DNA of 64,000 nucleotides from Jiangella sp. DSM 45060 (GTDB lineage Bacteria > Actinomycetota > Actinomycetes > Jiangellales > Jiangellaceae). Where the stretch lies: assembly GCF_900105175.1 (NCBI RefSeq), contig NZ_LT629771.1, positions 7,150,622 to 7,214,621 on the forward strand, read 5' to 3'. Positions 12,977-30,935 of this stretch are shown piece after piece. The translations under genes were made by a program, and so were the position numbers. Below the pieces are notes generated by a model. That model did not search any database. It saw only the letters and a program-made list of their open reading frames with translations, and had not been told where the DNA came from. The stretch's first letter is position 1; every line of letters starts with the position of its first letter.

Positions 12977-14470
12977 ATGCGTTCTGACGGATTACGAGCC
13001 TGCGCGCTCGCTCTTGGATGTCTGATCGTGGCCGGCGGCTGTTCGGGCGTCGTCCGCAGCACCGACGACGACCCCGCCGCCGCACCGACCTCGTCGGCGC
13101 CGGGCGTCGCCGAGTCGTTCGACAGCCGGTTCACCGGCACTGAGGCGTTCTGCACCGCGGACACCGGCGACCACCAGCCGGAGGAGGTCGAGCCGGGCAT
13201 CACCGCCGACTCGGTGGTCCTGACGAACGTGCGGCTGCGGCTGGAGGACCTCGTGGAGGTCGGCTTCGCCGAGGACGTCGGCGACACCGCCGACCAGGTC
13301 GAGACGTTCGTGCGCATCGTCAACGAGGAGTGCGGCGGCATCAACGGGCGCCTGATCGAGCTGAACACCGTCGAGGTCGCGGTGCCCGGGTTCGGCGCCA
13401 CCGATCCGCAGGTCGAGGCCCAGCAGGTGTGCACGCAGATCGCGAAGGACCAGCACGCCCTCGGCGCCTTCTCCTTCACCGGGGTCGGGAACCCGCTGGC
13501 CGGGTGCCTCACCGGGCCCAACGACGTCATCTACGTGACGACGTACGACCTCGGCGCGCAGGACTTCGACGCCGCCGACGGCATGCTGTTCTCGGTCAAC
13601 CACTCGCCGGCCGACATCCTCACCTACGCCGCGAGGGAGCTGGCCGGCGAGCTCGAGGGCCGGCCGATCGGCGTCGTCTACACCGACACCGAACCGAACC
13701 CGCAGGTCGTCCAGGAAGGCCTGGTCGCCGAGCTGGAACGGCTCGGCCTCGACGTCGCCCGCGTCGACGCCATCGGCTGCGACGCCGGCAACTGCACCGA
13801 CGGCCTGATCGAGTCGGTGCAGGGCATGCGCGCCGACGGCGTCGAGGTGGTGTTCCCGCTGCTCGACACCATCACCATGCCCACGTACCTGGGCGAGATG
13901 GTCACGCAGGGCTTCCAGCCCGGCGACGTCGAGTTCGTGAACACCAGCTTCCAGGCCCAGGACAGCGAGCTGGTCACCGGCAAGATCGTCCAGTTCGCCG
14001 GCGAGGCCGCGGCCGCGCTCTACAACGGCGCCACGATCGTCTCGGGCAGCCGGGCCGGCGAGCACCGCCTCGACGACTTCGTCCCCGACCCGTTCGTCGA
14101 GATGTGCAACAGCGTCTACGCCGAGTACAGCGACGTGATCGACGCGCCGTACGACCTGCTCGACGACGCCGACAACCTGCGGGCGAGCAACGTGGCCTCC
14201 AGCTGTTCGGGGATCCGGCTGTTCGCCCGGGCGATCGAGGCGGCCGGTGCGAACCCGACCCGGCAGGACGTCGCGGCCGTCCTGGCCGGCTTCGGCGACT
14301 TCGACCACGGCGAGTCGCTGCCGGCGAGCTTCGGCCCCGGCAAACCGACCGGCCCCGACGCGATCGTGATCGAGCGGTTCCACTATCCGTGCCCGGCGGA
14401 GTTCGGCAGCGCCTCACCGCACTGCATCGTGCCCGAGACCGACTTCCTCCCGCTGCCGGCCGATGACTGA
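12977..14470 (+). CDS. Liv-type ABC transporter substrate-binding lipoprotein
   Basis: The 497-residue protein starts at an ATG with GGAGAG upstream; the much longer open frame to the left is out of frame with the hydrolase and is not a gene. A signal peptide ends in a slightly weak lipobox (IVAGGC, cysteine near residue 22), followed by an acidic, Ser/Pro/Ala-rich linker. The rest has the layout of type-1 periplasmic binding proteins used by branched-chain amino acid/amide importers. It would be tethered outside the membrane and feed the fused Liv proteins downstream. The next gene overlaps its end by 8 bp. Confidence 0.88.
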   Translation: MRSDGLRACALALGCLIVAGGCSGVVRSTDDDPAAAPTSSAPGVAESFDSRFTGTEAFCTADTGDHQPEEVEPGITADSVVLTNVRLRLEDLVEVGFAEDVGDTADQVETFVRIVNEECGGINGRLIELNTVEVAVPGFGATDPQVEAQQVCTQIAKDQHALGAFSFTGVGNPLAGCLTGPNDVIYVTTYDLGAQDFDAADGMLFSVNHSPADILTYAARELAGELEGRPIGVVYTDTEPNPQVVQEGLVAELERLGLDVARVDAIGCDAGNCTDGLIESVQGMRADGVEVVFPLLDTITMPTYLGEMVTQGFQPGDVEFVNTSFQAQDSELVTGKIVQFAGEAAAALYNGATIVSGSRAGEHRLDDFVPDPFVEMCNSVYAEYSDVIDAPYDLLDDADNLRASNVASSCSGIRLFARAIEAAGANPTRQDVAAVLAGFGDFDHGESLPASFGPGKPTGPDAIVIERFHYPCPAEFGSASPHCIVPETDFLPLPADD

Positions 14471-16687
14471 GCCGGCGGATCCGGGCGGGCCGCGGACCGC
14501 GACGCTGACCGCGGCGGTCCTGGCGGAGGAGTCGCGGCGGCAGGAGGCGCAGAGCCAGCGGTCCGAGCCGCTGGTGCTGCCCGACGAGCTGCTGCCGGCG
14601 GTCGGCGCCGCAGAGCTGTCGGTACGCGAGACGCTGCGCCGCGGCGGCTGGGCGATCGTGACGCTGGCCGTGCTGCTCGTGGTCATCGAGCAGCTCAGCC
14701 GCGAGACCACGAACGTGCTCGCGCCGGACATCCGCGCCTACTTCGGGCTGTCCGACACCGGGCTGATGGCGCTGGCCAGCTTCGGCGGCATCGCGCTGGT
14801 GCTCGGCGCGGTGCCGATGGCGTGGCTGGCCGACCGCGTGCCGCGCAAGTACGTCGTGGCCGGCTCCGCCGGTGGCGCGGCGATCTGCCTGGTCGGTGCG
14901 GCCCTGGCGGGCAACACGTTCCAGCTGTTCCTCGCCTACTCGGGCATCGGGCTCGCCGCCGCCTACTCCACGCCGGTGTTCGGCTCGCTCATCTCCGACG
15001 GCTATCCGCTGGAGGGCCGCGGGCGGATCTTCTCGCTGCACGCGATGGCGACGCCGCTGGGCCTGGCGCTCGGGCCGTTCACCGCCGGGAGCATCGCCAC
15101 CTTGGCCGGCGGCGCTGAGGGCTGGCGGTGGGCGTACCTCGCCCTGGCCGTGCCGGTCGCGGTGCTGGCGATCGCAGCGCTGGTGTTCCTGCGCGAGCCG
15201 GTGCGCGGACGGTACGAGCAGGAGACGGTCACCGGCGAGGTGCTGGACCAGAGCGATCGCGGCGGCGAGCTGCCGATCACCATCGGGACGGCGTTCGCCC
15301 GGATGAAGAAGATCAAGACCTTCTACTTCATGTGCCTCGGCATCGGCGCGCTCGGGCTCGCCCTCATCACCGTCCCGCTGCAGCTGACGCTGTTGCTGCG
15401 GGACGAGTACGGGTACGGCGCCTTCACCCGCGGCTGGATCCTGTCGCTCTGCCAGATCCCGTCGATCGTCGCCATGCTGATCGCCGGCCGGCGCTTCGAC
15501 CGGATGTACCGGGTCGACCCCGCCCGCACGATGCGGGTGGCGGGCTTCGCCATCGTCGCCTACGGCGTGCTGACGCTGGTCGCGCTGCGGCTGCAGCAGC
15601 CGGCGCTGCTGCTGGTCTGCTACGCGCTGGCGACCGCGTTCACCGGCATGGCGCTGGTGGCGATCAACCCGCTGGTGGCCTCCGTCGCGCCGTACCGGCT
15701 GCGGGCCCAGGCGTTCGCCATCGTGCCGATCTTCACGTTCCTGATGGGCGGCTTCCTCGGCGCGCTGGTGGTGGGCGCCATCTCCGACGCGCACGGCCAG
15801 CGGGTCGCGCTGACCATCGCGGTGCCGGTGTCGACGGTCGCCGGCGGCTACCTGTTCCACCGCGGCGCCCGCTACCTGCGTCAGGACATCTCACGGGCGG
15901 TCGAGGAGCTGCTGGAGGAACAGGAGGAGCGCCGCCGGATCGCCGCCGACCCGCAGGGCACCCCGGTGCTGCAGGTGCGCAACCTGGACTTCAGCTACGG
16001 CACGGTGCAGGTGCTGTTCGGCATCGACCTGGAGGTGGCGCGCGGCGAGGTGCTGGCGCTGCTCGGCACGAACGGCGCCGGCAAGTCGAGCCTGTTGCGG
16101 GTCATCAGCGGGCTGGGCATCCCCGACCGCGGTGTCATCCGGCTCAACGGGCGGTCGCTCACCTACGCCGAGGCGGAGCTGCGCTTCCGCGCCGGGGTCG
16201 TGCAGCTGCGCGGCGGCGCGGGCGTCTTCCCCGAGCTGACGGTGACGGAGAACCTGCGGACCGCGCTGCTCACCACCGACCTGTCACCGGCGGAGGCGAA
16301 GGACCGGGTCGACCGCGCCCTCGGCCGGTTCCCGGCGCTGGCCGACGCCCGGCAGTGCCGCGCCTGCGACCTGTCCGGCGGGCAGCAGCAGATGGTCGCG
16401 CTGGCGATGACGCTGGTGCACGAGCCCGAGCTGCTGATCATCGACGAGCTGTCGCTCGGGCTGGCGCCGGTCGTGGTGCAGGAGCTGCTCGCCGTCGTCG
16501 AGGAGCTCAAGCGCGAGGGCACGACGATGATCATCGTCGAGCAGTCGCTCAACCTCGCGCTCTCCTTCGCCGACCGCGCCGTCTTCATGGAGAAGGGGCG
16601 GATCATGTTCGAGGGCTCGGCCGCCGAACTGGCCGGCCGCGACGACCTCGTCAGAGCCGTGTTCCTCGGCGAGACGCGGGGGTCGCG

Positions 16688-16691
<4 letters not shown>
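14463..16691 (+). CDS. MFS transporter fused to LivF-type ABC ATPase
   Basis: The 742-residue protein joins two transporter classes in one continuous frame. Residues about 60-475 form a complete 12-helix-like MFS domain with motif A (AWLADRVPRK). Residues about 501-742 are a LivF-like ATPase: Walker A LLGTNGAGKSS near 535, signature LSGGQQQM near 637, Walker B LLIIDELSLGLAP near 657. It lies between the binding lipoprotein and the LivHMG fusion, with overlaps at both ends, so the ATPase half should energise that importer. The MFS half could be a second route for the substrate, an exporter or a scaffold. No frameshift or internal start is evident. Confidence 0.92.
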
Positions 16692-19546
<2,855 letters not shown>

Positions 19547-29295: not shown

Positions 29296-30204
29296 GTGAG
29301 GTTCGGTGCGCATCTGCCGCTGATCGACTTCGACGGTTCGGGGATCGCCTCGTTGGCCGGCTACGTGGATGCTGCGCGCGAGGCGGGGTTCAGCGCGATC
29401 AGCGCCAATGACCATCTGGTGTTCCAGAGACCGTGGCTGGACGGGATCGTCGCGCTGTCCAGCGTCGTGGATCGCAGCGCCGACCTGACCTTGGCGACGA
29501 CCGTGGCTCTGCCGGTGGTGCGCGGGCCGGTGGCGCTGGCCAAGGCTGCCGCGGCGTTGGACGCCCTGTCCGGTGGTCGTTTCGTGCTCGGTGTCGGTCC
29601 GGGATCCTCGGCCGCCGACTACGACGCGGCCGGGGTGCCGTTCGAGGAGCGGTGGCCGCGGTTCGACGACGCGGTCCGGGTGCTGCGCGCCTCGCTCACC
29701 CACGATCCCGCACCGGCTGCGGAGCGCTTCTACGTCACACCCGCCCTGGAACCCCGGCCGGCCCGGCCGGTCCCGATCTGGATCGGCAGTTGGGGCTCGG
29801 CGGCCGGGCTTCGCCGGGTGGCCCGCCTGGGCGATGGCTGGCTTGCGTCGGCATACAACACGACACCCGGCCAGATCTCCGCCGGCCGCGACCTCCTGCA
29901 CCAGGCCCTGGCATCGGCCGGGCGAGACACCAGCCCCTTCCCGATCGCCCTTGCGACCATGTGGACCTACCTGACCGATTCCGCGGCCGAGTCGCGGACG
30001 AGACTCGACGCCCTGGCTCGGATGCTCGGCCGGGACCCGGCCGCCCTCGCCGACCAGGTGCTCATCGGGCCCGCCGACGTGTGCGCCGCAAAGCTGGCTC
30101 GCTACGCCGACGCCGGCGTCGACGAGGTCTTCATCTGGCCGGTCGCCGACCCGATCGCCCAACTCCGCCGCTTCGGGACGTCGGTCATCCCGCACCTGAG
30201 CTGA
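29296..30204 (+). CDS. Luciferase-like (LLM) flavin/F420-dependent oxidoreductase
   Basis: The 302-residue TIM-barrel protein matches the LLM class: RFGAHLPLIDFDG at the N-terminus, SANDHLVFQRPW, and the conserved SGGRFVLGVGPG loop. Members use FMNH2 or F420 to oxidise or reduce small molecules. The GTG start appears leaderless. A second, different LLM protein is encoded at 30974, so this short segment has two such enzymes. Substrate unknown. Confidence 0.9.
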   Translation: MRFGAHLPLIDFDGSGIASLAGYVDAAREAGFSAISANDHLVFQRPWLDGIVALSSVVDRSADLTLATTVALPVVRGPVALAKAAAALDALSGGRFVLGVGPGSSAADYDAAGVPFEERWPRFDDAVRVLRASLTHDPAPAAERFYVTPALEPRPARPVPIWIGSWGSAAGLRRVARLGDGWLASAYNTTPGQISAGRDLLHQALASAGRDTSPFPIALATMWTYLTDSAAESRTRLDALARMLGRDPAALADQVLIGPADVCAAKLARYADAGVDEVFIWPVADPIAQLRRFGTSVIPHLS

Positions 30205-30276
30205 CTCCCGCGCGCGGGGCATCCGGTCACCCTCGGGAGGGATGTGCGCTGCGTTGCCGATGTGGAGGGTTGAGGC

Positions 30277-30879
30277 ATGAGCACGATCTCGCCCGACCCT
30301 CCGGTCCGCTCCCTCGCGCCATGGTGGCGGTCGCTCCACGAACCCGTCGCGGGGGTGTCGGTGTGGACTCGCCGTGCAGCTCTGGCAATCCCGCTCGTGG
30401 TATTGCCCTCGAGCATCTGGCGGATCGTCACCGTCGTGTTCCTCCCTCTGCCGGACGGTATGACAACCGCCGAGGCCCGCGGAGACCTGCCGACGTGGCT
30501 TCCCCTCGAGGTCTACGTCCTCCTCCTCTCGGTGGTGTCGGAGGGACTGGCGCTGCTGTGTGTCGGATTGATCGCGAGGTGGGGGGAGGTGTGGCCGCGG
30601 TGGGTCCCCGTCCTGCGCGGCCGGCGGATCCCTGTTCCGGTGGCACTGGTGCCGGCCCTGCTCGGAGCGACGATCCTGACCGCCTTGTGGGGATGGGTCG
30701 GCGTGTCGTTCTTGCTGGGCCGGAACGTCCAGGGCGAGCGGCTCGCGGACGGCTCGCCTCTGCAGCTCGACAGCATCGACGGCGTCGTCGTGTTCGTCTG
30801 CTACGCCCCGCTCATGCTGTGGGGACCGCTGCTGTTCGCCGTCGCGTTGGCCTACTGGCGGCGACGCAGCGACACCTGA
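30277..30879 (+). CDS. Hypothetical membrane protein, four helices
   Basis: The 200-residue protein has four hydrophobic segments: about residues 28-50 (AALAIPLVVLPSSIWRIVTV), 75-98, 120-142 and 170-192. No family is recognised. A GGAGG lies upstream of the ATG. It falls between two LLM oxidoreductase genes on the same strand but is separated from both by gaps of 70-95 bp, so an operon is uncertain. Both ends are probably cytoplasmic given the flanking charges. Confidence 0.75.
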   Translation: MSTISPDPPVRSLAPWWRSLHEPVAGVSVWTRRAALAIPLVVLPSSIWRIVTVVFLPLPDGMTTAEARGDLPTWLPLEVYVLLLSVVSEGLALLCVGLIARWGEVWPRWVPVLRGRRIPVPVALVPALLGATILTALWGWVGVSFLLGRNVQGERLADGSPLQLDSIDGVVVFVCYAPLMLWGPLLFAVALAYWRRRSDT

Positions 30880-30907
30880 GCTCAACGACCGTCATCCGCT
30901 CGATGAG

Positions 30908-30935
30908 TTGGGACCTGCTCGGCAGTCAATAGGGT
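30908..30935 (+). promoter_or_regulatory. Candidate promoter of second LLM gene
   Basis: TTGGGA, a 16-nt spacer and TAGGGT lie 38 nt upstream of the ATG at 30974, which has its own GAGAGGA ribosome site. The arrangement is a normal leadered promoter. Pattern only. Confidence 0.4.

What the first reader, a model, noticed from the sequence alone, without database searches (positions are those of the whole stretch)
14463..19546. A Liv-type ABC importer packed into three polypeptides, one of them an MFS-ATPase fusion
The ATPase LivF is fused behind a complete MFS transporter, while LivH, LivM and LivG form one 952-residue chain. Frames are continuous, and the genes overlap (ATGA), so these are real fusions. 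Joining a secondary carrier to the ATPase of a primary importer is unusual: the MFS half might work on the same substrate, export a product or be scaffolding. The LivG part also has an altered signature (LSTGTRR).
Basis: partly seen in the sequence, partly recalled or inferred. Interest (0 to 1): 0.75.

Follow-up and report, generated by a model that had tools for sequence, protein, structure and literature searches.

The report
Permanently fused MFS–ABC import system
In this soil actinobacterium, and in many other Actinomycetota, an ATP-driven nutrient importer has one of its two motor subunits permanently joined to a complete second transporter of a different kind; the join is real and old, but no held paper describes it and its purpose is untested.

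Summary
The operon is: lipoprotein binding protein (12977-14470), MFS–LivF (14463-16691, 742 aa), LivH–LivM–LivG (16688-19546, 952 aa).

It is neither an assembly error nor a local oddity. Full-length MFS–LivF proteins occur in 31 of 394 sampled genomes of the class and 19 of 396 of the phylum, with LivH/M/G parts beside them wherever enough sequence was available. In 296 Actinomycetota genomes all 38 matches to this MFS subfamily are fused to LivF; none stands alone.

The window's MFS half is not degenerate: 12 predicted helices, motif A, a conserved TM1 acid and purifying selection. It diverges at the rate of LivH and LivM. Related systems order the domains differently (LivHM + MFS–LivF–LivG), and some lack the MFS (LivH–M–F–G in one chain).

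The odd LivG signature LSTG[TSL]R marks the whole family, with or without MFS. It implies one consensus and one degenerate ATP site.

Best reading: a HAAT-type importer with a tethered, probably active MFS carrier serving the same catabolic pathway. What the MFS carries, and whether the halves are coupled, is unknown. I call it a new variant of a known kind.

The parts
12977..14470 (+). Lipoprotein substrate-binding protein, 497 aa (Peripla_BP_6)
   Evidence: Pfam PF13458 E 3e-13; lipobox-like LIVAGGC at residues 16-22, seen by eye
14463..16691 (+). MFS–LivF fusion, 742 aa
   Evidence: One open frame; MFS_1 and ABC_tran; AlphaFold2 pLDDT 90.1, pTM 0.85
14643..15887 (+). MFS half (residues 61-475), 12 predicted TM helices, Spinster/ACS-like
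15888..15962 (+). Helical, Glu-rich linker from TM12 to the ATPase (residues 476-500)
   Evidence: Helix 446-495 continuous in the model; Asp475 in 46 of 46 sequences
15963..16667 (+). LivF ATPase domain (residues 501-735): GTNGAGKS, LSGGQ, IIDELSLG, VEQS
   Evidence: closest solved structure 1ji0, Z 31.7
16688..19546 (+). LivH–LivM–LivG fusion, 952 aa
   Evidence: AlphaFold2 pLDDT 82, pTM 0.82
16688..17572 (+). LivH permease domain
17657..18637 (+). LivM permease domain
18737..19483 (+). LivG ATPase domain with BCA_ABC_TP_C tail
19184..19204 (+). Altered ABC signature LSTGTRR of LivG
   Evidence: LSTG[TS]R in 54 of 57 LivG domains and LSTG[TSL]R in 22 of 23 more

Best explanation
This is a binding-protein-dependent importer of the hydrophobic amino acid (HAAT, Liv) kind whose LivF subunit carries a whole MFS carrier as a permanent part. 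The likely unit is one lipoprotein, one LivH–LivM–LivG chain and one MFS–LivF chain; LivF and LivG form the ATPase pair under LivH and LivM. LivG's Walker motifs and switch His face LivF's normal LSGGQ, making the working ATP site. LivF's Walker motifs, which lack the His, face LivG's LSTGT, making a degenerate site. The MFS half is a transport-competent, probably ion-coupled carrier held beside the importer by TM12 and its helical linker. It most likely moves a solute of the same catabolic pathway: a second route for the substrate, or release of a product. Shown: the architecture, its conservation, the obligate fusion and the selection on the MFS half. Inferred from homology: the complex and its ATP sites. 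Guessed: what the MFS carries.
For: Domains and frames. Recurrence: 31 of 394 class genomes and 19 of 396 phylum genomes hold full-length matches. LivH/M/G parts adjoin in every locus with enough flank. Obligate fusion: all 38 MFS-only matches in 296 genomes lie in frames of 737 aa or more; each is shown to carry LivF. MFS retained: all-helix model; SPNS1/SPNS2/SLC37A4/DgoT-like fold, Z 38-41 over 373-411 residues. D or E at position 76 in 43 of 46; R128, D179, R186, R414, D475 in all 46. Selection: MFS dN/dS 0.09-0.18 against congeners, below LivH's 0.22-0.32. Median identity MFS 35%, LivH 37%, LivM 42%; distances correlate with LivM at r 0.95. ATP sites: motif tables. A canonical pair in the same genome has LSGGE/LSGGQ, and its LivF also has VEQN. 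Shared pathway: cluster of amidase, hydrolase, hydantoinase-like A/B, aminotransferase and SDR; several genes persist with the transporter in two Nocardioidaceae.
Against: No transport, ATPase or complex data exist. The TM1 acid lies one turn from the Spinster Asp, and Ser79 is opposite that Asp. Three divergent sequences lost the TM1 acid, and several lack the motif A Asp, while cytoplasmic charges stay invariant, which also fits a structural role. MFS-less relatives show that the MFS is not needed for ABC import in every system. Two Nocardioidaceae carry a separate stand-alone MFS in the same cluster, so the fused one need not be the pathway's carrier.
Confidence: 0.5

Rival explanations
1. 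The MFS half no longer transports. It is a membrane anchor or structural belt that fixes LivF beside LivH–LivM, as extra helices do in some ABC proteins.
For: Charges on the cytoplasmic side and at the TM12 exit (R128, D179, R186, R414, D475) are invariant even where the TM1 acid and motif A Asp are lost. The fusion is obligate. The linker helix is continuous.
Against: Twelve helices are much for an anchor. 43 of 46 keep the TM1 acid, and the window keeps motif A. MFS-less relatives have working-looking LivF.
Confidence: 0.25
2. The MFS half is a sensor or regulator: it binds substrate or product and sets the activity of the ATPase, a transceptor-like role.
For: MFS and permease domains diverge together (r 0.91-0.95), as expected if both follow the substrate. 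Fused regulatory domains on transporters are known (PMC10710835).
Against: In that review the MFS is the regulated part, not the regulator. There is no direct evidence here.
Confidence: 0.15
3. Two unrelated transporters share one chain only for co-expression and equal dosage, without functional coupling.
For: The fused MFS is never found alone, and the operon genes overlap.
Against: Shuffled architectures keep MFS next to LivF in particular; the pairing with one ATPase is stricter than dosage would require.
Confidence: 0.1

Closest known systems
LivFGHMJ, hydrophobic amino acid uptake transporter (HAAT) family of ABC importers
   Same: Peripla_BP_6 binding protein, two BPD_transp_2 permeases, LivG- and LivF-type ATPases; LivF without the switch His, as in the canonical copy of the same genome
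   Different: LivF behind an MFS carrier, H–M–G in one chain, LivG signature LSTGTR instead of LSGGQ
Spinster (SPNS1, SPNS2, bacterial 6e8j) and anion:cation symporter (DgoT) MFS carriers
   Same: Fold of the MFS half (Z 33-41); best PDB sequence match SPNS1, E 4e-15 over the N half; best NCBIfam match D-galactonate transporter, far below its cut-off
   Different: About 20% identity or less over the whole domain; no Asp at the NxxDR position; C-terminal ABC ATPase
MFS carriers with fused C-terminal domains (CBS, UspA, cyclic-nucleotide-binding), as reviewed in PMC10710835
   Same: Soluble C-terminal domain on an MFS carrier
   Different: Here the added domain is the motor subunit of a second, complete transporter encoded next door
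Single-chain LivH–M–F–G systems found here (L083-L087, L090)
   Same: Same LivF/LivG subfamily with LSTGTR, binding protein next to it in L083 and L087
   Different: No MFS domain

Membership tests
HAAT (Liv) ABC importer | Two BPD_transp_2 permease domains | tested here: met
   Two stretches, E 3e-55
HAAT (Liv) ABC importer | One LivG-type and one LivF-type ATPase with Walker A, Walker B and signature | tested here: met
   Best matches LivG and UrtE/LivF, below the equivalog cut-offs; motifs
HAAT (Liv) ABC importer | Peripla_BP_6 binding protein encoded in the operon | tested here: met
   PF13458, E 3e-13
HAAT (Liv) ABC importer | Consensus LSGGQ-like signature in LivG | tested here: not met
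   LSTGTR; usual for Liv systems but, in my judgement, not a defining feature, so membership stands
HAAT (Liv) ABC importer | Uptake of branched-chain or other hydrophobic amino acids or amides | not testable with these tools
   No biochemical data
Major facilitator superfamily | 12-helix MFS fold | tested here: met
   MFS_1 E 2e-44; model and structural matches
Major facilitator superfamily | Motif A (G-x3-D-R-x-x-R-K/R) in loop 2-3 | tested here: met
   MAWLADRVPRK in the window; D124 and R125 in 35-36 of 46, R128 in 46 of 46
Major facilitator superfamily | Transport activity of its own | not testable with these tools
   Needs an assay
Spinster family | NxxDR in TM1 with the coupling Asp (coupling role from own knowledge) | tested here: not met
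   EQLSR aligned to NYMDR of SPNS1

The most novel reading that the evidence does not exclude
The two halves form one coupled machine: ATP binding or hydrolysis at LivF gates or drives the MFS carrier, or the MFS and LivHM pass the same solute in opposite or alternative directions. The result would be a combined primary and secondary transporter.
Probability: 0.2. Interest if true: 0.9.

Novelty: new variant of a known kind. Interest (0 to 1): 0.62.

Why it matters
Primary and secondary transporters are treated as separate classes. Here evolution has kept a full MFS carrier joined to the motor of an ABC importer across a phylum, and this MFS subfamily was not found without it. The natural series (MFS–LivF, MFS–LivF–LivG, and MFS-less LivHMFG) gives ready-made comparisons for asking whether an ATPase can gate or energise a secondary carrier. 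It also offers an importer with one consensus and one degenerate ATP site. Genome annotation by single-domain names probably hides the family.

Tried and rejected
Frameshift, assembly or chance fusion: rejected.

Separate LivF by internal initiation: no convincing start or ribosome-binding site; not excluded by experiment.

Degenerate MFS: rejected for the window; true only for a few divergent relatives, L035 and L037 most clearly.

LSTGTRR caused by the MFS fusion: rejected, since MFS-less relatives have it too.

One origin of the MFS-less systems: a single clade is neither shown nor rejected (3 changes on the tree, AU p 0.10), so gain and loss of the MFS cannot be ordered.

Conserved neighbours that would name the substrate: only in the closest clade; elsewhere flanking genes vary.

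Solved relatives of LivH/LivM by sequence: none found by phmmer; the structural list for LivHMG was filled by ATPase domains, so the permease fold was not tested there.

Plasmids: one full-length relative, in Embleya, without annotation.

Literature: no held paper describes the fusion. Two papers by Willson and colleagues on domain fusions to MFS carriers are not held and may list it.

Distribution outside Actinomycetota: not testable with the handles on offer. The one other record, a Terriglobia MAG (L050), has loci and matches like those of an Acidimicrobiales record (L052) and is probably misbinned. Not done: complex prediction (length limit).

Full report
What is there. The operon on the + strand holds three transport genes. 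A lipoprotein binding protein (12977-14470, 497 aa, Peripla_BP_6) is followed by MFS–LivF (14463-16691, 742 aa) and LivH–LivM–LivG (16688-19546, 952 aa). The overlaps are ATGACTGA and ATGA. The finding's coordinates cover the last two; the binding protein makes up the three polypeptides of its title. The window lies in a single-contig 7.49-Mb genome. The best named relative is Jiangella muralis, 96% identical in MFS–LivF.

Is the fusion real? Yes. Among 394 genomes of the class, 40 match at E 1e-60 or better; 31 of these cover both MFS and ATPase, the other nine only the ATPase. In the phylum sample the figures are 23 matches and 19 full-length among 396. A scan of named genomes brought in relatives from Nocardioides marmoriginsengisoli, Acidimicrobiia and others. 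Nearly all frames are open throughout. Only GTGs without a good ribosome-binding site lie near the LivF boundary.

Architecture of the family. Profiles built from these domains show four arrangements. (A) MFS–LivF plus LivH–M–G, as in the window; the commonest. (B) LivH–M plus MFS–LivF–LivG (for example L022, L023, L025, L031, L125, L142). (C) LivH–M–F–G in one chain of about 1265 aa without MFS (L083-L087, L090). (D) LivH–M plus LivF–LivG without MFS (L088, L089, L091). The chains have been cut and joined repeatedly, but where the MFS is present it sits directly before LivF.

The fused MFS does not occur alone. A search with only the MFS half in 296 Actinomycetota genomes gave 38 matches. All lie in frames of 737 aa or more. 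Profile hits on the fetched loci and the full-length matches together show LivF behind every one of them. Some genomes have five copies (G399, G427, G644). The search scores only the best few candidates per genome, so distant stand-alone relatives could be missed. In the window's own genome no other MFS gene matches at E 1e-5.

Is the MFS half functional? The AlphaFold2 model has mean pLDDT 90.1 and pTM 0.85, with an all-helical membrane domain and a TM12 helix (446-495) that runs on towards the ATPase. I counted 12 membrane helices from its helix list. VIA-align places the MFS half with SLC37A4, SPNS1, SPNS2 and DgoT (Z 38-41, rmsd 2.9-3.7, 373-411 residues) and the ATPase with 1ji0 (Z 31.7). 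By sequence the nearest solved MFS is SPNS1 (E 4e-15, N half). An acid at position 76 in TM1 is kept in 43 of 46 sequences; R128, D179, R186, R414 and D475 are invariant. The acid lies one helical turn before the Asp of Spinster's NxxDR, where this protein has Ser79, so coupling as in Spinster is not shown. In small-genome relatives (L035, L037) both the TM1 acid and the motif A pair are gone; there the carrier may be dead or altered.

Selection. Against L100 (a congener) and L038 (Jiangella muralis) the MFS domain has dN/dS 0.09 and 0.18, LivH 0.32 and 0.22, LivF 0.01 and 0.08. Over 26 systems with both chains the median identity is 35% for MFS, 37% for LivH, 42% for LivM, 62% for LivF and 61% for LivG, and MFS distances correlate with those of LivM at r 0.95 and LivH at r 0.91. 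The MFS thus behaves like a third permease domain of the system, not like a relic. Common descent alone also gives high correlations, so this is no proof of contact. Counts at larger distances are saturated and biased by base composition and were not used.

The ATP sites. LivF has GTNGAGKS, LSGGQ, a DELSLG Walker B and VEQS where other ATPases have the switch His. LivG has a normal Walker A, DEP and EHD but LSTGTR as signature. LSTG[TS]R occurs in 54 of 57 LivG-type domains (the other three have LSGGQR, LSRGER and MSRGDK and sit in chains with no other Liv domain) and LSTG[TSL]R in 22 of 23 more, including MFS-less systems. A canonical pair in the same genome has LSGGE (LivF) and LSGGQ (LivG); its LivF also has VEQN. 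From the general head-to-tail geometry of ABC ATPases (own knowledge), the pair should have one consensus site (LivG Walker motifs with LivF LSGGQ) and one degenerate site. This is inference.

Context. The genes around the operon encode an amine oxidase, Lrp/AsnC regulator, amidase, alpha/beta hydrolase, SDR, MfnA-like PLP decarboxylase, hydantoinase/caprolactamase-like A and B subunits, class III aminotransferases and a methylmalonate-semialdehyde-type dehydrogenase. HyuB, aminotransferase, amidase, hydrolase, binding protein, both fusions and SDR stay together in two Nocardioidaceae at 62-82% identity. This points to import of a cyclic or open amide or a related amino compound. Those two also carry a separate MFS gene of another subfamily. 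In more distant relatives the neighbours differ, so the family probably serves several substrates.

Interpretation. The best-supported reading is a HAAT-type importer with a tethered MFS carrier that still transports. Scaffold and sensor roles are the main rivals. The invariant cytoplasmic charges, kept even where transport residues are lost, favour a structural link between MFS and the complex in addition to, or instead of, transport. Whether the MFS came once and was lost, or was gained more than once, is undecided.

Novelty. Both halves belong to well-known kinds. No paper in the held library describes the combination, but two relevant subscription papers could not be read, and NCBIfam showed no model spanning the fusion among the best hits. 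I rate it a new variant of a known kind: surprising to transport specialists, experimentally open, and with natural MFS-less controls.

Noticed in passing
L083:4924-8727, L084:5355-9149, L085, L086, L087, L090: A complete importer core LivH–LivM–LivF–LivG in a single chain of about 1265 aa without MFS; in L083 and L087 a Peripla_BP_6 protein is encoded just upstream.
   Followed up: partly
L035, L036, L037 (genomes of 1.0-1.7 Mb): The MFS domain is strongly diverged; in L035 and L037 the TM1 acid and the motif A Asp-Arg are lost, while cytoplasmic charges remain. A possible natural non-transporting form.
   Followed up: partly
G399, G427, G644: Five MFS–LivF systems in one genome of 2.6-3.3 Mb, so the family has expanded there.
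   Followed up: no
window 3311-28313: Catabolic cluster with amine oxidase, amidase, hydantoinase/caprolactamase-like A and B subunits, PLP decarboxylase, class III aminotransferases and two aldehyde dehydrogenases, with an Lrp/AsnC regulator on the opposite strand; substrate unknown.
   Followed up: partly
L039:3135-4589, L040:3316-4698: A separate stand-alone MFS gene of another subfamily inside the same catabolic cluster in two Nocardioidaceae.
   Followed up: partly
window 29433-30932: Open frame of 499 aa without any Pfam match; may not be a gene.
   Followed up: no
L050: Record named Terriglobia (Acidobacteriota) whose locus gives the same matches as an Acidimicrobiales record (L052); probably misbinned.
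   Followed up: partly
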